DNA of 64,000 nt from Acidilutibacter cellobiosedens (lineage in GTDB: Bacteria; Bacillota; Clostridia; Tissierellales; Acidilutibacteraceae). This document shows positions 6,700 through 47,562 of this stretch, one piece after another. The stretch lies in contig NZ_CP035282.1 of the NCBI RefSeq assembly GCF_004103715.1, positions 1,230,673 to 1,294,672 of the forward strand, given 5' to 3'. Each line of letters begins with the position of its first letter. Within the stretch, counting starts at the first letter, position 1. The notes below the pieces were generated by a model. It was given only the letters and a program-made list of their open reading frames with translations, did not search any database and was not told where the DNA came from. Position numbers and translations under genes: made by a program.

Positions 6700-6742
6700 A
6701 AAAAAAGCCTTAGAAATATTATGAAATATCTCCCAGGCTTTT
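6700..6742 (-). terminator. Riboswitch expression-platform terminator
   Basis: On the minus strand AAAGCCT...GAGATATT pairs with AATATTTC..AGGCTTT and is followed by a U-run. The 5' arm uses the conserved AAAAGCC(C/T)GGGAGA segment of the aptamer, so ligand-bound aptamer and terminator are mutually exclusive: an ON switch. Confidence 0.8.
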
Positions 6743-6825
6743 ATCCTTCCGTGTACACAGTCAACTGTGTGCCTTTCTCTCGGACCTGCCAGTTATAAAC
6801 TGCGGAACCCTAGAAAGCTTAAATA
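6728..6825 (-). ncRNA. ykkC-class riboswitch aptamer, most likely guanidine-I
   Basis: The minus strand carries the ykkC-yxkD consensus blocks in order: CTAGGGTTCCG, GGTCCGAGAGAAA, a hairpin with ACACAG/CTGTGT, then ACACGG, and AAAAGCCTGGGAGA. These are hallmark conserved segments of the guanidine-I class. The PRPP, ppGpp and (d)NDP ykkC subtypes differ at a few binding-site bases that I cannot judge by eye, so the ligand is inferred. It lies between a good promoter and the B3/4-domain gene, with an overlapping terminator. Confidence 0.85.
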
Positions 6826-32436: not shown

Positions 32437-33486
32437 ATGAGAAAAGTTCAAATTACACTAAAACTTATTTCACCATTAGTAAGTTTTGGAGAGGATAAAA
32501 AAAATAAAGAATTTAGAGTTACAGAATTGAAGGCACTTTTACGTTCAACTTTTAGAGAATTGTATTATTTTCAAAATTTAGAAGAGATGAAAAAACAGGA
32601 GGCTGATTTATTTGGAAGCACAGAAAAGAAAGCACCGGTTTCGATAGTATTACAAAATATAATATGTAGGGTTGATAGTAGTATTGCTATGCTGCCGCAT
32701 AAAGAAGGCAAACAAGCTTTTTATACTTCATGTTTTGGCATAGACAGCGAGATAACAATATGTTTTATTGAGAGAAATAAAAAAGGTAATATGGATTTTC
32801 TTGAGTTCTATATTTATTTGTTAATTCAAGCTTCAATAATAGGTGCATTGGGAAGAAGATCAAGAAAAGGATTTGGTTCTTTTAAGGTAACGAATATAGA
32901 AGATTTGTCTGATAATGATGGTGATGAATTTGGGAAATTACTGCCCATGAATTTAGAAGATATTGTGGAATTATTGACAAAATTAAATTTGAACAATCAA
33001 GGAGAGTTTGTAAAACTAAGAAACTGTTCTACAACGGATAACATTGTTTCTTATAGCGGGCAGGGCAAATCAGACGAGCTGGATTATCCATTTGTGAAGA
33101 GAATAACAATAAATCATTTAAATAATGAAACAGATGTAAAGGGATTGTTAAAAAAGATTTCTGAGTTGACTCATGATAGATTGTGTGCAATAGAAAATAA
33201 TGAAAACGGCCTTTTGGATAGAAAAGATCTTGATAAAGTAAATGTCAGTATTTTAGGGCAGCATAAATCAGGAATTCCCAAAATAAAAAGATTTGCATCA
33301 CCTGTATGCATTTCATTTGCAATGGACAGAGGAAACAATAAATATTTAATTATTAAAGAACTGAATTATAATTATGCCGTTAGCAAATTGTATAATAATA
33401 AAACCAAAGTTAACTCAAAAATAAACCAAAAGTATATTTCTGAGTTTATAAATAAATTGGTACAAACAGGAGGTGTTAAGAAATGA
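32437..33486 (+). CDS. cmr1: Type III-B CRISPR RAMP protein Cmr1
   Basis: A 349-residue RAMP-fold subunit that caps the 3' end of the crRNA in the Cmr complex. The N-terminus VQITLKLISPLVSFGED is a RAMP strand, and the glycine-rich loop GALGRRSRKGFGSF (about residues 134-147) is characteristic of Cmr1. GTAAGGGGGAGAG precedes the ATG. The gene begins 17 nt after the pglX stop and overlaps cmr2 by four bases (ATGA-type). Codon use is visibly more A+T-rich than in pglX, suggesting that the Cmr block was brought in as a unit. Confidence 0.88.
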   Translation: MRKVQITLKLISPLVSFGEDKKNKEFRVTELKALLRSTFRELYYFQNLEEMKKQEADLFGSTEKKAPVSIVLQNIICRVDSSIAMLPHKEGKQAFYTSCFGIDSEITICFIERNKKGNMDFLEFYIYLLIQASIIGALGRRSRKGFGSFKVTNIEDLSDNDGDEFGKLLPMNLEDIVELLTKLNLNNQGEFVKLRNCSTTDNIVSYSGQGKSDELDYPFVKRITINHLNNETDVKGLLKKISELTHDRLCAIENNENGLLDRKDLDKVNVSILGQHKSGIPKIKRFASPVCISFAMDRGNNKYLIIKELNYNYAVSKLYNNKTKVNSKINQKYISEFINKLVQTGGVKK

Positions 33487-35348
33487 AATATTTATTGGCT
33501 GTAACTTTAGGTCCTGTACAATCTTATATAGAAGAATCCGAGAAGTTTATAGGCCTTAGGAATGGCAGTCAAATAATATCGGATTTAATGAAAAATATAA
33601 TAGAATATATATTTGATAAAGATGAGGGAAGCCAAATAATATACCCTAAATATGATAAACCTATTGACATAAATAGTATTAATGATTGTACAAACTATCT
33701 TGTTTTTGAGGTAACTGAAAAAGATAAGTTAGAATTAAAATCCTTAGAAGATAAAATATACAAAAATATGGGCGGAAATCCTGAGAATTTTAAAGAAACT
33801 TTTTTTCTGTTTTGGGCAATTGAAGAATTGAAAAGTGATGAAGATTATTCCACTATATATAGTAAACTTCAAAGATTAATGAACGGAATCAAGCATACCT
33901 ATATTTTTAACAATGAAGAGAAATTTCAGGAAGGTAATTTTGGTAATGATAAATGCCATATATGTGGGAAACGCTCTATATATAAGAATGATTTATGCCC
34001 CTTATGTATATATAAAAGAGAATATAATAAAAAATACAATGAATCTAATTATGAATCCAATTATTCCATAGCTATAAAATGTTGGAAAGCGAAATATAAG
34101 GGAAATATTAAAGCAGTTGATAAATTGTTTAAAGAAATTTTTAAGAAAGGGCATGAAGATGGATATTATAGCTTATCGCAGTTAGAAAATACCATATTTA
34201 TGTTAAAAAAAGGTGATATCAAAAATAAAAGATTTAAAGATTTTTTATATGATTTGAAACAAGAATCAGCAGAGAAGTTAGAAAAATTAACAAAGAAAAA
34301 GGAAAATAGATTATTATCGAAAGAGCTTGAAACAATTCAGCAAGACCTTAGAAGCATACAGCAGGATCTTAAAAAATTATATAAAAATGAAAATAAAGAT
34401 TTAAATATATCAGAACCCAATTATGAGTACGGATTTATACAATTTGATATAGACTCCTTAGGGGATTGGATGCATGGAAAGTTTTTGGATGAAGATATGC
34501 AGAAAAATTTGAAAGCGTATCAAGAGAAAATATCGGGACTGCTTATTTCATTCGGTAGAGAACTGAGAAAAGAGTTAGAACATGAATGTGATATTATTTA
34601 TTCGGGCGGAGATGATTTTTTAGCTATGATGCCTATAGAAAAAATTCAATTTGTATTAGATAAAATAAAAAAATTGTTTGAAAAAAATGTTGGGATGAAG
34701 TTGCAAGTTATCGGAATATCTAAAGAGATGACTCATTCAACATGTATAACGATTGCGCCGTGTAAAGTACCTATTGGAGAAGTGTTAAGTAAAAGTAGGT
34801 TAGAATTGAATAAAGTTAAAGAAAAATATGAGAAAAATAATAAGAATGGTATTGCATTTAATTATATTGTAGGGGACGGTGCTGCAGTAACAGCTTATAT
34901 GAAAAAAGATAATTTTGACGGATTCTTAAAACTAATAGAATATTATAAAGAAATAAAAGATATTTTTCCTTTATCTTTTATTAAAAAGTATCAAAAAGAG
35001 TTTATAAATTTCCCGTATGAAGAAATTACAAATCAAAATTTCAGAGATTTAAGATCTATGAACAAAATAGAGTTAAAACGTATTATGAAAAAAAGCAAGT
35101 TAGTTAAGGAAGATAAAGGAACCGAACAAAAAGAAATTGCAATACAAAAATATATGAATGAAATGATAAAATTTATGGATTCATTATTTTATAAAAATTG
35201 TGTGCCCATATCTGCCAATAGGGAAAATGTAGATTTTGAAAATTATTCAAATATAATAGATATTTACGAAAGGTTATGCAGATTACAAGGATTCTATAAA
35301 TGTATCGGAGGTGATGTAAATGAAACTACTGAAATTAAAACCGTGTGA
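33483..35348 (+). CDS. cas10: Type III-B Cas10 (Cmr2), cyclic oligoadenylate synthase
   Basis: 621 residues, short for Cmr2. It starts directly with the first Palm-type segment (LAVTLGPVQSYIEESEKFI), without the N-terminal HD nuclease domain. A zinc-binding motif CHICGK...CPLC uses Cys158, 161, 172 and 175. The first active-palm strand is FIQFDIDSLGDWM, and the polymerase signature SGGDD is intact at residues 374-378. It is therefore predicted to make cyclic oligoadenylates when target RNA binds but to lack HD-type ssDNase. It overlaps cmr1 by 4 nt and cmr3 by 29 nt. Confidence 0.9.
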   Translation: MKYLLAVTLGPVQSYIEESEKFIGLRNGSQIISDLMKNIIEYIFDKDEGSQIIYPKYDKPIDINSINDCTNYLVFEVTEKDKLELKSLEDKIYKNMGGNPENFKETFFLFWAIEELKSDEDYSTIYSKLQRLMNGIKHTYIFNNEEKFQEGNFGNDKCHICGKRSIYKNDLCPLCIYKREYNKKYNESNYESNYSIAIKCWKAKYKGNIKAVDKLFKEIFKKGHEDGYYSLSQLENTIFMLKKGDIKNKRFKDFLYDLKQESAEKLEKLTKKKENRLLSKELETIQQDLRSIQQDLKKLYKNENKDLNISEPNYEYGFIQFDIDSLGDWMHGKFLDEDMQKNLKAYQEKISGLLISFGRELRKELEHECDIIYSGGDDFLAMMPIEKIQFVLDKIKKLFEKNVGMKLQVIGISKEMTHSTCITIAPCKVPIGEVLSKSRLELNKVKEKYEKNNKNGIAFNYIVGDGAAVTAYMKKDNFDGFLKLIEYYKEIKDIFPLSFIKKYQKEFINFPYEEITNQNFRDLRSMNKIELKRIMKKSKLVKEDKGTEQKEIAIQKYMNEMIKFMDSLFYKNCVPISANRENVDFENYSNIIDIYERLCRLQGFYKCIGGDVNETTEIKTV

Positions 35349-36399
35349 CAATACTTTTTTTAGAGATGGGAAAGTTTTTAAAATGGGTTATAACAATATA
35401 ATACAATCAAAAAATATTCCTTATCCTTCGGTTTTTTCAGGTGCTGTTTTTACAGCATTTCTGGCAAATAATGAGGGCTTAAAGAAAAAATTCATGAAAA
35501 ATCCGTCTGTTAAAGAAAAAAGAAAGATTTTAAAAATAGGACAAGTGTATCTTTATAATGAAAGAACAAGAGATATTTATATACCTGCTCCTAAAGATTT
35601 ATTTAAAGATGAAGATGGTGAAATATATTTTGGAAAATTTGATGATTTGGCGGAAGGAATGACTTCTTTACCGTATAAGAAGGCACTTATGTCGCCTAAT
35701 ATTGATGGTATCGAAAGAATATCAAAAGAGTTTATTAATATTAAAAATATATTTAGAGAGTATAAAAACAAGTCTTATTTAGGAATGGATTTAGTTCATG
35801 AAGATGAAATATTTAAAAAGAATTATAAGGTAGGAATAGGTACTGATTATGATAAAAGGATTGTAAAGGAAGATTTGCTGTATAGAGTTGAGCAAACGGA
35901 ATTTTTATCTAATGATTGGTCATTTATAGTAGAGTATGATATAAATATCAAACTTATCAAAGAGAAAAAAATTGGAAATATTGAAGAATTAAAAAAAGGT
36001 TATTTAAAATTAGGTGGAGAGAACAAGATATGCAAATATGAGGAATGTGACAAATGGGTAAATGATTATATAAATGAGTTCAGAAAAAATGCGGAAGATA
36101 ATTATAAAATAAATTCATCTATTATAAAACTTATATTTACAAGTCCTGTTTATTTTAAAGGAGAGAATGATTTAAACAAGATTGGGGTTATAGGAATATC
36201 AAGCGACAAGCCTATTTATATAGGAGGATTTGATATTAAAGAAAAGGCAGCTAAACAAATGTATAAAGGTTATGAGGCGGGAACTGTATTTTTAATTATG
36301 GAAAATAAATTTGAAACCATAAAAAATAGACTTGAAACTTCTATAGGAGATTTAATTAACGAAGGCTTTGGAAAATATATAATTTTGGAGGAAGAATAA
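35320..36399 (+). CDS. cmr3: Type III-B CRISPR RAMP protein Cmr3
   Basis: 359 residues. The N-terminal signature KLKPCDNTFFRDGKVF is the Cmr3 form of the RAMP fold (usually PxDxLFFRDGxPF), followed by YPSVFSGAVFTAFLAN; the C-terminus has EAGTVFLIMENKF and ends GFGKYIILEEE. Cmr3 binds the 5' handle of the crRNA and contacts Cas10. The start overlaps the cas10 end by 29 nt, with GGAGGTG as ribosome binding site inside cas10. The last base overlaps the CARF-nuclease start (TAATG). Confidence 0.88.
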   Translation: MKLLKLKPCDNTFFRDGKVFKMGYNNIIQSKNIPYPSVFSGAVFTAFLANNEGLKKKFMKNPSVKEKRKILKIGQVYLYNERTRDIYIPAPKDLFKDEDGEIYFGKFDDLAEGMTSLPYKKALMSPNIDGIERISKEFINIKNIFREYKNKSYLGMDLVHEDEIFKKNYKVGIGTDYDKRIVKEDLLYRVEQTEFLSNDWSFIVEYDINIKLIKEKKIGNIEELKKGYLKLGGENKICKYEECDKWVNDYINEFRKNAEDNYKINSSIIKLIFTSPVYFKGENDLNKIGVIGISSDKPIYIGGFDIKEKAAKQMYKGYEAGTVFLIMENKFETIKNRLETSIGDLINEGFGKYIILEEE

Positions 36400-37853
36400 T
36401 GGATGGGAAACCGGATGCTTTAGTGATATGTTCTACATTAAATCAGATTACAAATTATTTGGTTATAAAAAAGTTTATAAAAGAATATGGACCCTTAAAA
36501 ATATATAATATTACATTTGATAAAGATGCCCGTAAAAAAATGAATAAAAATATTAATATTGATGATTGGGACAAACAATTAAAAAATTCATGTAAAAAAA
36601 AGTTTAAAATAGATGATTGTAATATCACAAATATTTGTCTTGGAGAAAGCGATTTTTACAATATTGGAGATATAGTTTATAAAGTGATGTGTGAGATTGA
36701 TAAATTTGATATAGAAAATAAAAAAACCATATATTGGCATATCACAGGCGGTCAAAGAATAATAGCTATGGCTGCCGGTGAAATTATCAAAGAAAGGCCG
36801 CAGGACAAATGGATTTATATGGAAGGCAATGTTGAAAAATTACTTGAATATAATAATCAATTAAAAGAAGTAGAAATAAATGATTATGATGATAAAAAGT
36901 TAGAATTTAAAGATGCATTTAAACTTGCAGGATTTAATTTAAATGAAGATCTTAAATCAACTACTATTTTAAATATAAGTAAGGAGTTAGGGCTTAATAA
37001 TAATGAGTTAAAAAATGAAATTGAATTTTATAATAAACTGTATGATATTTTTATACAACCGGAAGATAAGGCAGAAAAAATAGAAATGGAGCTATACGAT
37101 GGTGAGGAAGAGCAAAATAAAAGATCTTTTAGAAATTGGCTTATTTACTCTAATAGTAATAATGAAACTACTAAAAAAGAAAGAGTTGAAGGAGAAAATA
37201 GCGAGAGACAGCAATTTATATATAAATTATTTGAGAAGTTATTGGACAAACATAATGAATTAAAGAAAGAGATTTGCGGATACGATATATTAAATTCCCA
37301 AGAACTAAAAAATAATTATCCGGCAGGTTATATACTTGAAAAAATAGCAGCATGTAAGATATATGATGTTTTAAGATCTAAAAACTTTGCTCATAATATA
37401 AACCAAATAGGATTGAGTATAAAAGCATATTTTGACGATGAAGAAAAGATAAAGCATAAAGATAAAACAACAGTGGATGAGCTTGATATAGCACTTTTAA
37501 GCAGTACAGGCAAAATTATTAATTTTGAATGTAAAGTGGGGGGGATGGAAGGAGACAATGCTAAAAGCCACAACTATACGACATATAGATTAGCGGGAGT
37601 ATTTGGAATGCCGATACTGATTTCACCATTGCTTCAAGAAGAAATAAGTGAGTTAAAAGAAGAAGAAGTAGATAAGTCGAAAAAAGAAATAGATAAGTTA
37701 AAAGCCGAGTTTTATAAAAAACAGTATTCGACAATAAGAGCGGCAGAGAGAGCCGAATTATATGTGTGGGGAATAGATAGTATAGAAAATAATTTGGAAG
37801 AATTATTAAAAAGAAGACAGGAGGAAGGAAAATGTACACGAAAAGCCAATTAG
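36399..37853 (+). CDS. CARF-domain nuclease, Card1/Can2-like (DUF1887 type)
   Basis: 484 residues. The N-terminal CARF-like Rossmann domain has HITGGQRIIAMAAG (114-127), the ligand-loop region that reads cyclic oligoadenylate. A helical linker follows, then a C-terminal PD-(D/E)XK nuclease with ELDIALL (Asp363) and NFECKVGG (Glu377, Lys379) after YPAGYILEKIA. Card1/Can2 proteins bind cA4 and cut nucleic acids to arrest infected cells. It sits between cmr3 (1-nt overlap) and cmr4 (22-nt overlap), so it is built into the Cmr block. The ligand ring size is not readable from sequence. Confidence 0.82.
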   Translation: MDGKPDALVICSTLNQITNYLVIKKFIKEYGPLKIYNITFDKDARKKMNKNINIDDWDKQLKNSCKKKFKIDDCNITNICLGESDFYNIGDIVYKVMCEIDKFDIENKKTIYWHITGGQRIIAMAAGEIIKERPQDKWIYMEGNVEKLLEYNNQLKEVEINDYDDKKLEFKDAFKLAGFNLNEDLKSTTILNISKELGLNNNELKNEIEFYNKLYDIFIQPEDKAEKIEMELYDGEEEQNKRSFRNWLIYSNSNNETTKKERVEGENSERQQFIYKLFEKLLDKHNELKKEICGYDILNSQELKNNYPAGYILEKIAACKIYDVLRSKNFAHNINQIGLSIKAYFDDEEKIKHKDKTTVDELDIALLSSTGKIINFECKVGGMEGDNAKSHNYTTYRLAGVFGMPILISPLLQEEISELKEEEVDKSKKEIDKLKAEFYKKQYSTIRAAERAELYVWGIDSIENNLEELLKRRQEEGKCTRKAN

Positions 37854-38767
37854 AATATATAAAAGCCATAACACCGATACATGCAGGTACCGGACAGGAT
37901 TTGGGCATTGCGGATATGCCTATACAGAGGGAAAAACATTCTAATATACCCAAAATAGAAGCATCATCTCTCAAAGGTTCAATAAAAAGTATTTTGTATT
38001 ATAAAATAAAGAATGGAAATTGCAATAGTGAGAATAATGGAGAAGATGATTTGAAAAAAATGTATAAGTATTTTGGTCCTGAGAATGGAGACGAAGCTTC
38101 AAGTTTAATAGCCTTTACGGATGCAAAATTGCTGCTGTTTCCGATAAAGTCTGCTGCAGATATTTTCAAGCTTGTTACCTGCCCGTATATTTTAAAAAGG
38201 TGGGTTGAGGATTTAAAGTTAAGTAAAATCAATCAAGGCGGTCAGGTGGATAAAAATGAAAATGAAAATAAAAATAATTATAATCGGATAGATGATTTAG
38301 ATGTGAAAGACGGACAGGCAATAGATTTAGGTGAAGGGAAAGATAATATAATATTGGAAGATTATGTTTTCAAAAAAAGTGAAACACAATGTAAAGAAGT
38401 TTTAAAAGAAATATTTAAAAAAGAAGATGTTGATGTTAAGAAAATCATTATACTATCCGATTCGGATTTTGTAGAACTTGTAACTTTATATACGGAAATT
38501 ATAACAAGGAATAAGATAGATACAGATACTGGTGTAGCTAAGGATGGAGGGCTTTTTACAGAAGAATATTTACCGGCTGAAAGTATATTATATTTTATAG
38601 TGTTGGAGGCGCCGAATTTTAATGGGGATGAAGAAAATAATGCTATAAAGTATTATACCAAACATATAGGCGATGTATTCCAAGTAGGAGGAGATTTTAC
38701 TATAGGAAAAGGCTTTGTAAAAAGATTGAGCAAGGAGAGTGGTCGCGATGTCAATCAAGAATCTTAA
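37832..38767 (+). CDS. cmr4: Type III-B CRISPR backbone protein Cmr4
   Basis: A 311-residue Cas7-type backbone subunit that cuts target RNA every six nucleotides. The N-terminal signature TPIHAGTGQDLGIADMPIQR carries the catalytic aspartate at position 28 in IADMPIQRE, intact, and SSLKGSIKSILYY follows. The C-terminus has FQVGGDFTIGKGFVK, the RAMP glycine-rich loop. The start overlaps the CARF-nuclease end by 22 nt, with AGGAGGAAGG as ribosome binding site. Confidence 0.9.
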   Translation: MYTKSQLEYIKAITPIHAGTGQDLGIADMPIQREKHSNIPKIEASSLKGSIKSILYYKIKNGNCNSENNGEDDLKKMYKYFGPENGDEASSLIAFTDAKLLLFPIKSAADIFKLVTCPYILKRWVEDLKLSKINQGGQVDKNENENKNNYNRIDDLDVKDGQAIDLGEGKDNIILEDYVFKKSETQCKEVLKEIFKKEDVDVKKIIILSDSDFVELVTLYTEIITRNKIDTDTGVAKDGGLFTEEYLPAESILYFIVLEAPNFNGDEENNAIKYYTKHIGDVFQVGGDFTIGKGFVKRLSKESGRDVNQES

Positions 38768-39269
38768 TTTAGAAATTGCTCAGTTTGCTATGAAAAGTGT
38801 TTTAGACTCGGTTAAGGAAATGGAAAGTTGCGTAGATGGAGAAAATAAAAGGGAAAAAGGAAAAGTCGGTAAACCCAAAGAAGATGTCAAAAAAGATACT
38901 AAAAAAAATTCTCCTTATAAATCTTTAATTAAGAAAATACCTGTAATGGTACAAAAAAACGGGTTAATTAATACATTAGTATTTTTATTTTCCAAACAAA
39001 AAGGTAAGGAGTATAAGTTGGCTTTAAATCATTTTATCAATTGGAGCATAATAAACCCTAAAACTAAAGACATGGAAAGTTTTAAAAAAATAAAATTAGA
39101 AGAAGATCAATTTGGAGAAGATCAATTCGAAAAAGATAAATACAAAGAGTATATAAAAGCTGTATATGGATTATCTTCTAAGGAATATAGAATTCTAACG
39201 GGAGAAATGATTAATTTATTTGTTTGGCTTAAAAGGTTTGCTGATGGTGTAATTGAAGGGGATGATTAA
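38748..39269 (+). CDS. cmr5: Type III-B CRISPR small subunit Cmr5
   Basis: About 173 residues, alpha-helical, with the Cmr5 N-terminal pattern NLEIAQFAMKSV, a lysine-rich variable insert (KREKGKVGKPKEDVKKDTKK) and a helical core (KSLIKKIPVMVQKNGLINTL, then LTGEMINLFVWLKRFADG). Cmr5 forms the belly filament contacting target RNA. The start ATG lies 10 nt after AAGGAG; a GTG at 38739 is closer to the ribosome binding site than usual. It overlaps cmr4 by 20 nt. Confidence 0.85.
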   Translation: MSIKNLNLEIAQFAMKSVLDSVKEMESCVDGENKREKGKVGKPKEDVKKDTKKNSPYKSLIKKIPVMVQKNGLINTLVFLFSKQKGKEYKLALNHFINWSIINPKTKDMESFKKIKLEEDQFGEDQFEKDKYKEYIKAVYGLSSKEYRILTGEMINLFVWLKRFADGVIEGDD

Positions 39270-39272
39270 ATT

Positions 39273-40496
39273 ATGGGTAATAGCAATGAAGTATTTTGCA
39301 TAAAGAAAGAAAGTGATAATAGATTTGTACCAATATTTGTAGATAAAGAGGAAAGAGAAAATAATAAAAAAGGTTATATAGAATATTACGGATGCAATGA
39401 ACTTGTTCACAATATTTCAAATTCCAAAGATATTTCTAATCTATTATTAAAATTAAATAAATTTTCAGGCATTGAAATCCCCCAAGACATAAATACAGTA
39501 AAATATAAAGAAATATTGGATCAAGTAAGAAAAAATAATAGGGAGATAATGGCATTAACAGAAGAACAATACTATTGGCTGAACTTTGATGCAAAAATAA
39601 TGGATAAGTTAGCAATAGGTTTAGGAGGGCAATCTGTATTTGAAAATGATATTACTTTACATCATATATATGGTATTCCTTATATTCCAGGCCAGGCAAT
39701 AAAGGGCAGTATGCGGAATTATATAATAAGAGAAGAAAAAGAATTTAACGGAGATGAAATTAAAGCTGTTAAAAATTACTTTTTCAGATGTATATTTGGA
39801 TCAGGCTCAGATGATGAGAATGCAGATCAAGGGAAGGTTATTTTTTTAGATGCTTACCCTAACGATAAATTTGATTTAGAAAAAGATGTAATAACAACTC
39901 ACTATACTAACTATTATCAGGGGAGCGGTTTTCCGTTAGATACAGAAGAGCCGATTCCAAACAATTTTCTAATTGTAAAAGATACCTGTTTTAGTTTTAA
40001 TATTGGAATAAGCAGAAAAGTAGCAGATGAAAATTGTACATTGAGCAATGGGAAAAGCGTAAGGGCTTTTCTGTTAGAAACAATATTGGATGTTTTGCAG
40101 TATAATGGATTAGGTGCTAAGACATCGGTAGGATATGGATTTTTTGATGTGGACAGAAAACAAATTATAGCCGATGAAAAAGCAAAATGGGAAGAAGAGA
40201 AAAGACGATTAGAGGCAGAAACAGAAAAGAAAAAATTTGAAGAAGAAACAAAAGGCATGACAGAACTCCGGATAGAAATGTACAAATTAAAAAAAATGAC
40301 GGGGTCTACTAAACACAACGAGGTTATGAATCTGTTTAAGGAGTATATAGATAAAGTCGATGGAGATGAAAAAATAGAATTGGCTGAGTTTATAAAAAAT
40401 TATTTGGTTTCTGAAAATAAATGGAACAAAAAAAACGGTGATAAATTAAACAAAAAAATTGAAAGAATCTGTGATATACTAAATTGTGAAATTTAA
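39273..40496 (+). CDS. cmr6: Type III-B CRISPR RAMP protein Cmr6
   Basis: 407 residues. The RAMP core has the Cmr6 motif IPYIPGQAIKGSMRNYI and the glycine-rich loop LGAKTSVGYGFFDV (about residue 275). A charged coiled-coil segment (KAKWEEEKRRLEAETEKKK) and a helical C-terminal extension of about 110 residues follow; the extension is longer than in minimal Cmr6 proteins. It is the last Cmr gene and lies 42 nt before pglZ, with no terminator in the gap. Confidence 0.88.
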   Translation: MGNSNEVFCIKKESDNRFVPIFVDKEERENNKKGYIEYYGCNELVHNISNSKDISNLLLKLNKFSGIEIPQDINTVKYKEILDQVRKNNREIMALTEEQYYWLNFDAKIMDKLAIGLGGQSVFENDITLHHIYGIPYIPGQAIKGSMRNYIIREEKEFNGDEIKAVKNYFFRCIFGSGSDDENADQGKVIFLDAYPNDKFDLEKDVITTHYTNYYQGSGFPLDTEEPIPNNFLIVKDTCFSFNIGISRKVADENCTLSNGKSVRAFLLETILDVLQYNGLGAKTSVGYGFFDVDRKQIIADEKAKWEEEKRRLEAETEKKKFEEETKGMTELRIEMYKLKKMTGSTKHNEVMNLFKEYIDKVDGDEKIELAEFIKNYLVSENKWNKKNGDKLNKKIERICDILNCEI

Positions 40497-43082: not shown

Positions 43083-44414
43083 ATGTTGGAAAGGGTTAAT
43101 AGAAGTATAATTTCCAATAAGCTTTTAACTTATTTCCCTGGAAAGATTGTTAGAAAAGATCTAACTAAAAAAATTAAAGAGGGTGCAAATGTCCCTATTT
43201 ATGTGTTGGAGTATTTATTAGGTATGTATTGTTCTTCTCAAGACGAAGAAGTTATTGAAGAAGGGATACAAAATGTAAAGGATATATTGGCTAAAAATTA
43301 TGTACGACCGGATGAAGCACAGAAGATTATTTCAAAATTACGTGAAACAGGCAGTTATACGGTTATTGACAAAGTTTCGGTTAAATTAAACTATAAGACA
43401 GATACTTATGAAGCAGAATTTTCTAATTTAGGCATTCGGGGAGTGCCGATATCTCATACATATCCTTTGAAATATGAAAGACTTCTTTCAGGAGGCATTT
43501 GGTGTATTGTCCGTATGGAATACTATTATGATGAAGAAGATAAGAGGCGAGTCCCTTTTATTATACACAAATTGACTCCAATACAGATGCCGAGAATAGA
43601 TATAGATGAGCTGAAGACAGCCCGCAGGGAATTTACAGATGAAGAATGGATTGATGTAATACTTCGCAGCACGGGAATGGAACCGGACAGTTTTAATGAC
43701 AGACAAAAATGGCTGCATTTGGCACGTCTCATTCCTTTGGTAGAAAATAATTATAATTTTTGTGAACTTGGCCCCAGAGGAACAGGAAAGTCTCATATTT
43801 ATAAAGAGATTAGCCCCAACAGCATTCTTGTTTCGGGCGGGCAGACTACTGTGGCAAATTTGTTTTATAATATGGCTTCCAAGCAGATCGGGCTTGTGGG
43901 TATGTGGGATTGCGTTACCTTTGACGAAGTGGCGGGAATTACTTTCAAAGATAAGGACGGAGTCCAGATAATGAAGGATTATATGGCATCAGGTTCCTTT
44001 GCCCGTGGGAAAGAGGAGAAAAATGCTTCTGCTTCTTTTGTTTTTGTAGGGAATATAAATCAGTCTGTAGATGTACTATTGAGAACTTCTCATTTGTTTG
44101 AGCCGTTTCCTGAATCTATGAATACCGATACTGCTTTTTTAGACCGTATACATTGTTATTTGCCCGGATGGGAAATACCTAAATACAGGCCGGAATATTT
44201 TACTGATGATTATGGTTTTATAACAGATTATTTTTCTGAAATTATGAGAGAGCTACGAAAAATTTCATGTGGGGATGCTTATGACAAATTTTTCAAATTA
44301 GGTAATCAGCTGAATCAAAGGGATACCATAGCAGTAAAAAAGACGGTATCCGGGCTGGTAAAACTTATTTATCCCGAGGGTAATTATACTAAAAAAATAT
44401 CGAAAAAATTTTAA
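43083..44414 (+). pseudogene. brxL: BrxL, N-terminal part (AAA+ ATPase), ended by a frameshift
   Basis: 443 residues of the Lon-like BREX ATPase BrxL: an N-terminal DNA-binding region, Walker A GPRGTGKSH (230-238), then SGGQTTVANLF and Walker B WDCVTFDEVAG. The frame goes out of register at ACTAAAAAAATATCG (about 44390) and stops at 44414. The -1 frame from that A7 run reads NIEKILRFALEMRRRVKEQL, which is the expected BrxL continuation and joins the C-terminal part at 44429. One missing A, phase variation, -1 ribosomal slippage or a sequencing error are the possibilities. Confidence 0.85.
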
Positions 44415-44428
44415 GGTTTGCTTTAGAG

Positions 44429-45130
44429 ATGCGAAGACGGGTTAAGGAACAGCTAAAAAAAATCGGCGGTATGGAGTTTTATGATGTGAACTTTTCATAT
44501 ATAGATCTTGAAACTTTTAATGAAGAGTATGTTCAGGTTCCTGAACAGGGCGGAGGAAGCTTAATCCCAAAGGGTATGGGAAAACCTGGACATATTTATC
44601 ATGTATCCCGAGGAAAATCAGGAATGATTGGTGTATTTAAATTGGAGACACAAATGACATCAGGTAACGGTAAGTTTGAGAGAACAGGACTTGGTTCTAA
44701 TTCGTCAGCCAAAGAATCAGTTGATACGGCCTATAAATATCTTAAGGCAAATAGTAAATTCATCAGTGGAAATATAAGCACTACGACTAAAGACTATTTA
44801 GTAAATGTTCAGGATTTAAACGGTATAGGGATGACTACGTCCCTGACTCTATCTACGGTAATTGCAATATGTTCCATTGCTTTAAATAAACCGCCTGTTG
44901 GCAGTATGGCTATATTGGGGGATATAAGTATCGGAGGTACATTGATAAAAGTAGATGAATTAGCTAATACTTTACAGGTATGTTTAGATAGCGGTGCAAA
45001 GAAAGTACTCCTGCCGTTGACATCGGCAGCCGATTTGGGAACGGTGCCGCCGGAATTGGTAGGAACTTTTAATTTGATTTTTTATAGAAATGCGGAAGAT
45101 GCGGTATTTAAAGCATTGGGAGTAGAATAA
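44429..45130 (+). pseudogene. brxL: BrxL, C-terminal part (Lon-like domain), out of frame
   Basis: 233 residues equal to the C-terminal Lon-protease-like domain of BrxL: MRRRVKEQLKKIGGMEFYDV, SYIDLETFNEEYVQVPEQGG and MAILGDISIGGTLIKVDELA. The ATG at 44429 has no ribosome binding site, and family sequence (ILRFALE) continues upstream of it in frame, so it is the detached second half of the gene at 43083. Together the two give about 680 residues, the normal BrxL length. BrxL is the effector ATPase in several BREX systems, so its state decides whether this locus is functional. Confidence 0.82.
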
Positions 45131-45269
45131 TGTTGATTCATCAAGGGAAAAATACTATTAATAGTTCACATAAATATTCATCTAATATGTTATAATTTCT
45201 TATGAATTTATGTAGGATTTTTTAAGAAAATTATAGCTGTAAAATAGGAGGATTTGTTGTAAAAATTAA

Positions 45270-45299
45270 TTGCTAAATTTGAAAAGTTTATGGTATAAT
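45270..45299 (+). promoter_or_regulatory. Promoter of the ToxI-like RNA
   Basis: TTGCTA, an 18-nt spacer and TATAAT lie about 175 nt before the tandem repeats, in the A+T-rich gap after brxL. A second TATAAT-like box is near 45390. Confidence 0.6.
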
Positions 45300-45473
45300 A
45301 TAAATGAGTAAGTAGGTGTTAAGGTACTTTCTTAATTTGTCCCTATAAGAGAAAGTTAAAAAATATACTGTACAAATTGTTTAAAAGGGTATAATTATTA
45401 AATATATAAAAAATTTGAGCATAATAAATTGTATAGTGAATATGCTAAACCTGTGAGTTAAAACTCACATTCA

Positions 45474-45593
45474 ATCAAAGAGGAGACCCCATGCCTTAAG
45501 TTGGGACATTGTTATCAAAGAGGAGACCCCATGCCTTAAGTTGGGACATTGTTATCAAATAGGAGACCCCATGCCTTGAGTTGGGACGTTGTA
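45474..45593 (+). ncRNA. toxI: ToxI-like antitoxin RNA: three 40-nt tandem repeats
   Basis: Three head-to-tail 40-nt units start at 45474, 45514 and 45554. The first two are identical; the third differs at four positions. Each contains GAGACCCCATGCCTTAAG and TTGGGAC, in which CCCA and TGGG can pair. A terminator follows, then a ToxN/AbiQ-type toxin gene. Tandem RNA repeats, terminator and endoribonuclease in this order define type III toxin-antitoxin systems, where each repeat folds as a pseudoknot that inhibits one toxin molecule. It is not a CRISPR array, because there are no spacers. Confidence 0.85.
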
Positions 45594-45595
45594 AT

Positions 45596-45640
45596 GAGAG
45601 ATGAGGTTACAAAAAATAATGCCTCATCTTCTCTTTTATT
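45596..45640 (+). terminator. Terminator between toxI repeats and toxN
   Basis: GAGAGATGAGG pairs with CCTCATCTTCTC, followed by TTTTATT. In known type III systems such a leaky terminator sets the excess of antitoxin RNA over toxin mRNA. Confidence 0.8.
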
Positions 45641-45723
45641 ATAACAAATATAAAAAATAATTTTAAAAGAACCTTCCGTAAATGAGTTTCAAGAAAAGCT
45701 TTTCTTATATGAGGTGGGTAATA

Positions 45724-46275
45724 ATGCAAAAAATCAGATTTTATAAAATTGATTTGAATTATGTAAAATACCTTTGGAAATTTGATAATAAAGTTCAATA
45801 TGATATATATAAATCTGATGATTATAATAAAAAGAGACCATATATAGGAGTTGTATTGGAAATAAATGATTTTAGGTATTTTGCACCTTTAGAGCATCCA
45901 AGAATTAGTCATAGAAAATTAAAAAGCAATCCTCATATACTAAAAATAAACAACGGAAGACATGGATTAATCGCTTTTAACAATATGATTCCTGTAAAAG
46001 AATCGCAATTAATAAACTTTGACTTTAAAGATGAAGATGCCAATTATCAAGAAATATTGAGAAGTCAATTTATATTTTGTGATAATAATAAGGAGAGGAT
46101 TAATAAACATGCTCAAAATACTTATAATAAAGTAGTAATTAAAAAAGATCCTTTTTTTATAAGTATATGTTGTAATTTTAAATTACTTGAAGAGAAATGT
46201 TTAAAATATATCGAACCTGCAAAACAATACATAGCGGTATCTAATGAAACAGAACATAGAAATATTGAAAAATAG
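45724..46275 (+). CDS. toxN: Type III toxin-antitoxin endoribonuclease, ToxN/AbiQ family
   Basis: 183 residues. The order of motifs matches ToxN/AbiQ: RFYKIDLNYVKYLWKFDNKV at the N-terminus, KRPYIGVVLEINDFRYFAPL, then HGLIAFNNMIPV, and a C-terminal helix with CCNFKLLEEKCLKYI. These enzymes cut mRNA and their own repeat RNA and kill phage-infected cells when the antitoxin is lost. The start ATG follows GAGGTGG; upstream in-frame codons lie between terminator and ribosome binding site. A terminator follows at 46281. Confidence 0.85.
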   Translation: MQKIRFYKIDLNYVKYLWKFDNKVQYDIYKSDDYNKKRPYIGVVLEINDFRYFAPLEHPRISHRKLKSNPHILKINNGRHGLIAFNNMIPVKESQLINFDFKDEDANYQEILRSQFIFCDNNKERINKHAQNTYNKVVIKKDPFFISICCNFKLLEEKCLKYIEPAKQYIAVSNETEHRNIEK

Positions 46276-46280
46276 GATAA

Positions 46281-46315
46281 ATAAAAAAGATAGCTTAACG
46301 GCTGTCTTTTTTATT
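46281..46315 (+). terminator. Terminator after toxN
   Basis: AAAAAAGATAGC pairs with GGCTGTCTTTTTT across a short loop and ends in a T-run. Confidence 0.75.
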
Positions 46316-46336
46316 TGACATATCATAATGTTTAAT

Positions 46337-46387
46337 ATATAATTAATTAGTAAATTAGTAAACTACTAATTTACTAATTAATTATAT
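46337..46387. promoter_or_regulatory. Perfect 24-bp inverted repeat with 3-nt spacer
   Basis: ATATAATTAATTAGTAAATT and four further bases are mirrored exactly on the other side of AAC. TTAGTAA units recur within it. It ends 11 nt before the start of the DUF6530-like gene, so it overlaps the likely promoter or leader. It can be a dimer-binding operator or an mRNA hairpin. Confidence 0.55.
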
Positions 46388-46398
46388 GGAGGCATATT

Positions 46399-46878
46399 AT
46401 GAAAATACCAACAACTTTAAAACATAAACCTGTTATTATATCGGAGAACTATGAAAATGTTGACGGCAGGTATGCTTATAATAGCGATGCTAAAGGCCTT
46501 TCATTAGGCTTGGCCCAGTGGAACGACAGAGGGAAAGTGGATATATCCGCTAAGGTATGGAGATATACGGGAGAAAAGTGGTCAAGGCAATCTGAGGAAC
46601 TTCCTCTTCATCGGGTACTTGATCTTGCAATACTTGTATGCAGAACAGAACTCTATTTCAGAGAGGCTTATAGATATCCCAAACTATATGATGATAAGAA
46701 TCCTGTTATTGACAGAGTGGGACTTCAGGGAGATGCCATGACGGTATCGGTATGTGTGGATAATGAAAAAATTGATGAGGATATTAAGCTTTTCAGGCAA
46801 GCTCTCAGTAATGATGATGAACTTATCGGAGAGAGATTAAAGACACTGTCAAGGATATTGAAGGAGATGGGGTATTAG
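46399..46878 (+). CDS. DUF6530-like protein, unknown function
   Basis: 159 residues without membrane segments. Recognisable stretches are YAYNSDAKGLSLGLAQWNDR, DISAKVWRYTGEKWSRQSEE and LPLHRVLDLAILVCRTELYF. I associate it with the DUF6530 family, which has no established activity. GGAGG precedes the ATG. It is followed 4 nt later by the GIY-YIG-like gene, so the two form an operon behind the large inverted repeat and next to the defence island. Confidence 0.5.
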   Translation: MKIPTTLKHKPVIISENYENVDGRYAYNSDAKGLSLGLAQWNDRGKVDISAKVWRYTGEKWSRQSEELPLHRVLDLAILVCRTELYFREAYRYPKLYDDKNPVIDRVGLQGDAMTVSVCVDNEKIDEDIKLFRQALSNDDELIGERLKTLSRILKEMGY

Positions 46879-46882
46879 TCAA

Positions 46883-47233
46883 ATGGATAGGAAAAAGGAA
46901 CTTAAAGAATTATATAAGCAGATGAAGCCGGAAATGGGAATATTTGCAGTTAAATGTACTGTTAATAATAAATATTTCATGGAATCTTCTCCAAATTTAA
47001 AAGGCAGAATAAACAGCACTGTTTTTAAACTTAATGCAAAAACTCATCCCAATAAGGAGCTGCAGGAGGATTGGAACAGGTACGGTGAAGATAGATTTAA
47101 TATTAGTATAATTGATACTCTTAAATATAGTGAAGATGAGACCAAAACCGACTATAGGGATGATCTGGCACTGCTTAAGGAAGTTTGGGAAGAAAAGATG
47201 TCAAAGGAGAATATAAAATTTTATAATCTGTAG
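46883..47233 (+). CDS. GIY-YIG-like nuclease-fold protein, degenerate
   Basis: 116 residues. The N-terminal half follows the GIY-YIG layout (GIFAVKCTVNNKYFMESSPN, then KGRINSTVFKLNAKTHPNKE, with EDWNRYGEDRFNISIID). The first tyrosines of the signature are replaced (GIF...KYFMES), so catalysis is doubtful. Such short proteins are common in Firmicutes with unknown role. It is cotranscribed with the DUF6530-like gene. Confidence 0.5.
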   Translation: MDRKKELKELYKQMKPEMGIFAVKCTVNNKYFMESSPNLKGRINSTVFKLNAKTHPNKELQEDWNRYGEDRFNISIIDTLKYSEDETKTDYRDDLALLKEVWEEKMSKENIKFYNL

Positions 47234-47267
47234 AAAAGTTTTATTCTTCCTCAATATAATGTTTTTT

Positions 47268-47300
47268 AAAAAGGCTTTCTTTAATGGGAGCCCTTTTTAT
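47268..47300 (+). terminator. Terminator; rest of the 47234-47562 gap
   Basis: AAAAAGGCT pairs with AGCCCTTTTT around TTCTTTAATGGG. The remaining 260 nt up to the oxidoreductase gene are A+T-rich, with a possible promoter but no convincing gene. Confidence 0.6.
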
Positions 47301-47562
47301 ATTAGTTTATTTTATTTCTATAATAAAATTTATTGTTGTATAATATGGGTTTATGTTATTGTATTATATGACACAGTAACAACTAGGACATGGAGGAGAT
47401 AAAATTTTGGAGGGATATATAAGAAACTAATTACATAATTATACTGGTTTTAAGGAAGATTTAATTAGTGAATATAAAGAATTATAATTTGGTATAGAAA
47501 AGAACAATAATTTGTTTGAACATAACAGGATATAAATATATAAATTTGAGGAGGAACATTAT

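What the first reader, a model, noticed from the sequence alone, without database searches (positions are those of the whole stretch)
45270..46315. New type III toxin-antitoxin locus directly behind the BREX-Cmr operon
Promoter, three 40-nt repeats, terminator and a ToxN/AbiQ-like RNase form a complete unit. The repeat unit is longer than the roughly 35-36 nt described for ToxI and antiQ and has its own core (GAGACCCCATGCC...TTGGGAC), so the RNA may be a new subtype. An abortive-infection system next to a Cmr-BREX operon adds a suicide layer triggered if the other defences fail or if phages shut off transcription.
Basis: partly seen in the sequence, partly recalled or inferred. Interest (0 to 1): 0.72.

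Follow-up and report, generated by a model that had tools for sequence, protein, structure and literature searches.

The report
Ordinary ToxIN toxin-antitoxin locus
A bacterium carries a small, complete "poison plus RNA antidote" unit of a well-known kind (ToxIN, type III) next to larger anti-phage genes; its RNA repeat is not a new subtype and the neighbourhood looks accidental, though its toxin has unusual active-site residues.

Summary
Three 40-nt direct repeats (45474-45592), a terminator hairpin, an intact 183-aa ToxN/AbiQ-family toxin gene (45724-46275) and a second hairpin form a textbook type III ToxIN locus: PF13958 at 151.5 bits (cut-off 25), and a predicted fold whose four best PDB matches are ToxN/AbiQ. 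The "new subtype" reading fails. Arrays upstream of 38 ToxN loci have periods of 33-54 nt; 13 of 38 are 39 nt or longer (four of the 13 weak) and four are exactly 40. Clostridium sp. Cult3 has the same core in a 36-nt unit before a related toxin gene (103 of 159 aligned residues identical). The core aligns with other ToxI repeats and fits their pseudoknot, with covariation in stem 2; the window's unit alone does not beat shuffles. The locus follows a BREX operon holding a Cmr cassette, but no other genome examined pairs the two closely. The one unusual point is the active site: T52-S53-x-K55 of solved ToxN is E57-H58-x-R60 here. E-H together is shared only with Cult3 among 53 aligned ToxN. Whether this toxin cuts RNA normally is open.

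The parts
45270..45299 (+). candidate promoter (TTGCTA, 18 nt, TATAAT, TG extension)
   Evidence: consensus match only, 19 sites found against 10.5 expected in the region
45452..45469 (+). leader hairpin just before the repeats
   Evidence: -8.0 kcal/mol, z -4.07, 1 of 200 shuffles as good
45474..45592 (+). toxI: three 40-nt direct repeats, presumed RNA antitoxin with an H-type pseudoknot core
   Evidence: homologous core and stem covariation
45596..45642 (+). rho-independent terminator between antitoxin RNA and toxin gene
   Evidence: -16.6 kcal/mol, 0 of 200 shuffles as good; sequence
45724..46275 (+). toxN: ToxN/AbiQ-family toxin (endoribonuclease by homology), 183 aa
46280..46315 (+). terminator-like hairpin after toxN
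   Evidence: -16.4 kcal/mol, z -6.78

Best explanation
A chromosomal type III toxin-antitoxin module of the ToxIN family, present as a discrete unit. One transcript gives a three-repeat precursor RNA; the terminator keeps toxin mRNA low. ToxN cuts the precursor within the A-rich linker (CAAAG/CAAAT) into about 40-nt units whose pseudoknot core binds and blocks ToxN. If transcription stops, for example in phage infection, the RNA decays and free ToxN cuts RNA. Shown here: anatomy, homology, predicted fold, conservation of the pseudoknot scheme across the family. Inferred from the family: processing and its place in the linker, neutralisation, trigger, abortive infection.
For: PF13958 at 151.5 bits; PADLOC AbiQ at 153.1 bits; solved relatives 4ato, 4glk, 7d8o, 2xd0 by sequence. 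AlphaFold2 model pLDDT 90.7; Foldseek's best four hits are these four, E 6.4e-12 to 1.2e-9, TMt 0.76-0.79. Repeats-terminator-toxin order as in print (PMC5086642, passages). Core aligned with units of 15 other loci: 85.8% of cells paired against 70.8% in shuffles and covariation score 0.441 against 0.186 (0 of 500 as high for each); stem 2 97.1% paired with double-sided changes in all 4 pairs. dN 0.23, dS 1.73 against Cult3 toxN by NG86. Significant DNA similarity to the Cult3 locus covers only the repeat region and the toxin gene.
Against: The window's own unit taken alone does not clearly fold better than shuffles: nested fold 165 of 200 as good; pseudoknot search 9 of 60 (copy 1), 4 of 60 (copy 3) and 17 of 100 as good. 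In one search two of five measures are not beyond shuffles (pairs with double-sided change 85 of 500, further pair types 208 of 500), and stem 1 is weak (75% paired). No Rfam family matched up to E 1. T52 and S53 of solved ToxN are E57 and H58 here, and T52V abolishes toxicity in E. coli ToxN (PMC8860590, passages). The closest homologue's toxin gene carries an in-frame stop.
Confidence: 0.92

Rival explanations
1. A decayed or catalytically weak ToxIN relic: the E-H-x-R active site no longer cuts RNA well, and the locus is kept by chance or for another role.
For: Two catalytic positions carry rare residues: Glu at T52 in 3 of 53 and His at S53 in 3 of 53 aligned ToxN; T52V is inactive in E. 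coli ToxN (PMC8860590, passages). The Cult3 relative has a stop in frame.
Against: Intact 183-aa ORF, repeats and terminator; dN/dS about 0.13 against Cult3, though dS 1.73 is near saturation and a second method failed. K33 to R is the majority state (31 of 53), K55 to R occurs in 5 of 53, and W57 is Trp in 0 of 53, so those three changes are not signs of decay.
Confidence: 0.15
2. A functional partner of the BREX-Cmr operon, a back-up suicide layer.
For: toxI begins about 345 nt after the end of brxL, same strand.
Against: Of 52 ToxN genomes checked, 14 have a PglZ match and only the window's has the two close; in the other 13 they lie on different contigs (11) or more than 1 Mb apart (2). 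Of 19 further genomes with the best PglZ matches, 2 have ToxN, both on other contigs; these two are among the 52 as well. Draft contigs could hide neighbours, and the new ToxN genomes were not checked for PglZ.
Confidence: 0.07
3. A new type III antitoxin subtype defined by a 40-nt unit and its own core.
For: No Rfam match; units of 36, 34 and 35 nt in the classic loci (PMC5086642, passage).
Against: Periods of 33-54 nt in 38 arrays, four of them 40; same core with 36 nt in Cult3; core alignable with other ToxI; 36-50 nt in print (PMC10853763, passages).
Confidence: 0.03

Closest known systems
ToxIN family (P. atrosepticum ToxINPa, B. thuringiensis ToxINBt, E. coli ToxIN, L. lactis AbiQ/antiQ)
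   Same: Toxin family and predicted fold, repeats-terminator-toxin order, about three repeats as in ToxIBt (2.9) and antiQ (2.8) (PMC5086642, passage), H-type pseudoknot scheme.
   Different: 40-nt unit instead of 34-36; 183-aa toxin with E57-H58-x-R60 in place of T52-S53-x-K55; no phage or toxicity data.
toxIN of Clostridium sp. Cult3 (L002)
   Same: Same repeat core, toxin 103 of 159 aligned positions identical (60% by tblastn), same E-H motif.
   Different: 36-nt unit, no significant DNA similarity in the flanks compared, toxin gene with an in-frame stop.
CptIN (Eubacterium rectale)
   Same: Type III, pseudoknot antitoxin; 45-nt monomer in print (PMC4627078, passages).
   Different: CptN (4rmo) is not found by sequence and is only a weak fold match (E 0.01).

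Membership tests
ToxIN (type III TA) | Toxin of the ToxN/AbiQ family | tested here: met
   PF13958 151.5 bits, cut-off 25; fold hits
ToxIN (type III TA) | Tandem repeat array directly upstream | tested here: met
   3.0 x 40 nt; score 70 against a maximum of 12 in 171 shuffles
ToxIN (type III TA) | Rho-independent terminator between repeats and toxin gene | tested here: met
   missed by the simple scan, which allows loops of at most 8
ToxIN (type III TA) | Promoter upstream of the repeats | tested here: inconclusive
   one 10-of-12 site at 45270, in an AT-rich region with many such sites
ToxIN (type III TA) | H-type pseudoknot in each repeat | tested here: inconclusive
   supported for the family in an alignment that holds this unit (3 of 5 measures beyond all 500 shuffles); not shown for this unit alone
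ToxIN (type III TA) | Catalytic residues K33, T52, S53, K55 | tested here: inconclusive
   R, E, H, R here; the first and last are conservative, the middle two are rare
ToxIN (type III TA) | Toxicity, RNA processing and neutralisation | not testable with these tools
   needs expression tests
CptIN | CptN-like toxin | tested here: not met
   4rmo not among the phmmer hits up to E 1; Foldseek E 0.01, TMt 0.55
TenpIN | TenpN-like toxin | not tested
   no TenpN sequence or model was compared by name; the only Pfam match up to E 1 is ToxN_toxin
part of the BREX-Cmr operon | Conserved neighbourhood | tested here: not met

The most novel reading that the evidence does not exclude
The window toxin and its Cult3 relative mark a small ToxN sub-lineage whose active site changed from Thr/Ser-Ser-x-Lys to Glu-His-x-Arg. 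A histidine-glutamate pair may do acid-base catalysis in the way of RNase A, perhaps with a new cutting site, while the ToxI pseudoknot was kept.
Probability: 0.22. Interest if true: 0.42.

Novelty: new member of a known kind. Interest (0 to 1): 0.2.

Why it matters
It adds one well-supported ToxIN locus and shows that repeat length alone is a poor mark of a new antitoxin subtype, because the same core occurs with 36-nt and 40-nt units. The E-H active site is a natural variant that could test how ToxN cuts RNA.

Tried and rejected
Rfam search of 45250-45750 at E 1: no match. Core pattern in viral contigs: none; P0002 in viral contigs: 2 stretches matched a pattern, none confirmed; 45440-45640 in plasmids by blastn up to E 1: none. 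P0002 by tblastn: 164 plasmid records and 3 phage records, all under 60% identity. Nested folding of single units: no better than shuffles. Pseudoknot search on all 38 arrays: 14 of 38 have 5 or fewer of 100 shuffles as good, mean rank 0.236; the window's unit is not among them (17 of 100), and the best structure found is not the shared scheme in several arrays (for example L007, L025, L029, L040). CRISPR array rejected: three abutting near-identical units without spacers. One relative from a phage record and one from a plasmid record have the usual TSPK and SSPK motifs. A paper search for ToxN with S53 gave 0 papers.

Faults in my own calls: one search read the loci found on the minus strand in the wrong orientation, and one search likewise; both were replaced. 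labels the active-site columns one off; one search has them right. Alignment A1 holds 18 rows from 16 loci, chosen by hand from the arrays (one search counts 38). Units L048, L049 and L050 were left out because phase or loops differed, one L002 copy was added, and some units were turned in phase or trimmed by hand. therefore leans towards the structure; one search is the unselected version. In one search, 19 of the 57 loci with enough upstream sequence showed no array over the threshold; four of the 13 long periods (L009, L014, L027, L058) rest on weak scores of 15-17, and L031 and L032 are near-copies. In one search the second method for dN/dS failed. G367 was left out.

Full report
Observation. 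Three 40-nt repeats lie at 45474-45592 (3.0 copies, 96% matches; spacing 40 and 40). Copies 1 and 2 are identical over the unit; copy 3 differs at four positions. A strong hairpin with a T-run follows (45596-45642). The toxin ORF starts at ATG 45724, behind GAGGTGGG, and codes for 183 aa. A second terminator-like hairpin lies at 46280-46315. The promoter at 45270 is a fair consensus match in a region full of such matches. A small hairpin (45452-45469, z -4.07) sits just before the repeats.

Toxin. PF13958 ToxN_toxin scores 151.5 bits with a cut-off of 25, and the PADLOC AbiQ model 153.1 bits. By sequence the solved relatives are 4ato, 4glk, 7d8o and 2xd0. An AlphaFold2 model from 28 aligned sequences has mean pLDDT 90.7; its four best Foldseek hits in the PDB are the same four ToxN/AbiQ structures, and CptN (4rmo) is fifth with E 0.01.

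Repeat length. I examined 58 ToxN loci, 57 with at least 100 nt upstream. 38 of 57 show an array above a threshold that 0 of 171 shuffled upstream regions and 1 of 55 downstream regions reach. Periods run from 33 to 54 nt; the 37 others have a median of 37. 13 of 38 are 39 nt or more, four of these on weak scores (L009, L014, L027, L058); four are exactly 40 (L001 = window, L043, L050, L063), all with scores of 70-83. The introduction of PMC10853763 gives 36-50 nt as typical (passages), and CptI of E. rectale is 45 nt (PMC4627078, passages). So 40 nt is ordinary.

Repeat core. Clostridium sp. Cult3 (L002) has GAGGAGACCCCATGCCTTGAGTTGGGA in a 36-nt unit, against the window's GAGGAGACCCCATGCCTTAAGTTGGGA in 40 nt; the extra bases lie in the linker. 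Eighteen units from 16 loci align with six invariant columns. The H-type scheme (stem 1 columns 7-10 with 19-22, stem 2 columns 14-17 with 33-36) has 85.8% of cells paired against 70.8% in shuffles and 39.8-48.9% when slid. The covariation score is 0.441 against 0.186, and 24 cells against 8.6 have a double-sided change (0 of 500 shuffles as high for each of the three). Two further measures are not beyond shuffles: pairs with a double-sided change (6, reached by 85 of 500) and further pair types (11, reached by 208 of 500). Stem 2 is 97.1% paired with double-sided changes in all four pairs; stem 1 is 75% paired, with only its two middle pairs well kept. In the window's unit stem 1 is GAGG/CCUU, reduced to AGG/CCU in copy 3, and stem 2 is CCCA/UGGG. 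Against this: the window's unit alone is not clearly better than shuffles (9 of 60 for copy 1, 4 of 60 for copy 3; 17 of 100), and the hand-picked rows favour the scheme. On all 38 arrays without picking, 14 have 5 or fewer of 100 shuffles as good, with mean rank 0.236.

Active site. PMC8860590 (passages) names Lys33, Thr52, Ser53 and Lys55 at the catalytic site and reports that K33A, T52V, K55A and W57F lose toxicity. Aligned to 2xd0 the window has R38, E57, H58, R60 and S62 at these positions. In 53 aligned ToxN the S53 column is Ser in 50 and His in 3 (window, L002, L030); the T52 column is Glu in 3 (window, L002, L040), Ser in 38, Thr in 9, Ala in 2 and Phe in 1; the K33 column is Arg in 31 and Lys in 22; the K55 column is Lys in 43 and Arg in 5; the W57 column is Trp in none. 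So only E57 and H58 are rare. The window, L002 and L040 form a supported clade (100/98), with the window and L002 together inside it (100/98); L030 lies elsewhere on a long branch whose place is unsure. Against Cult3 dN is 0.23 and dS 1.73 over 177 codons by NG86, which fits selection on the protein, though dS is near saturation; and the Cult3 gene has a stop in frame. Active with altered chemistry, or weakened: not decided here.

Neighbourhood. The genes before it are brxA, brxB, brxC, pglX, a Cmr/Cas10/CARF cassette, pglZ and a split brxL. Among 52 ToxN genomes (53 with a match; G367, under the cut-off, left out), 14 have a PglZ match at E 0.001, 10 of them over the family's cut-off, and only the window's pair is close. 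Of 28 other genomes with a PglZ match I checked the best 19 for ToxN: 2 have it, both on other contigs. Draft contigs could hide neighbours. The two nearest operons (G554, G571) have no match to the window's Cmr proteins in the 32-34 kb read of each and no ToxN in the genome. Significant DNA similarity between window 44900-47500 and L002 covers 45477-45607 and 45719-46209 only. The unit appears to move alone; its place behind BREX fits the usual clustering of defence genes (general knowledge).

Mechanism. The family model is taken over: precursor RNA cut by ToxN, pseudoknot units block the toxin, loss of transcription frees it (PMC5086642, PMC8860590 and PMC10853763, passages). None of these steps was tested for this locus.

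Verdict. A new member of a known kind. The subtype claim and the functional link to BREX-Cmr are not supported. The active-site variant is the only part worth a bench test.

Noticed in passing
window 32437-40496: A Cmr1-6/Cas10 cassette with a CARF-nuclease gene sits between pglX and pglZ of a BREX operon; no match to these proteins was found in the regions of the two nearest BREX operons read, G554 and G571. Three paper searches combining BREX with Cmr terms gave 3, 0 and 4 papers, none with the pairing in its title or the start of its abstract as listed.
   Followed up: partly
window 43083-44414 and 44429-45130: brxL is split into two ORFs in different frames; in G554 and G571 the two parts match in one frame.
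   Followed up: partly
L040 1310-1460: The array of the next toxIN relative has two repeats with an extra hairpin in the loop before stem 2 and a third without it (read by eye); L014 shows a similar insert.
   Followed up: no
window 46315-46387: A perfect TTGACA-17-TATAAT and a 24-bp perfect inverted repeat in front of a DUF6530 gene.
   Followed up: no
window 6728-6824: Guanidine-I riboswitch on the minus strand, 81.1 bits.
   Followed up: no
L030: A ToxN with Ser-His in the active-site motif has no array above the threshold, but one ToxI-like core can be read upstream (by eye).
   Followed up: no
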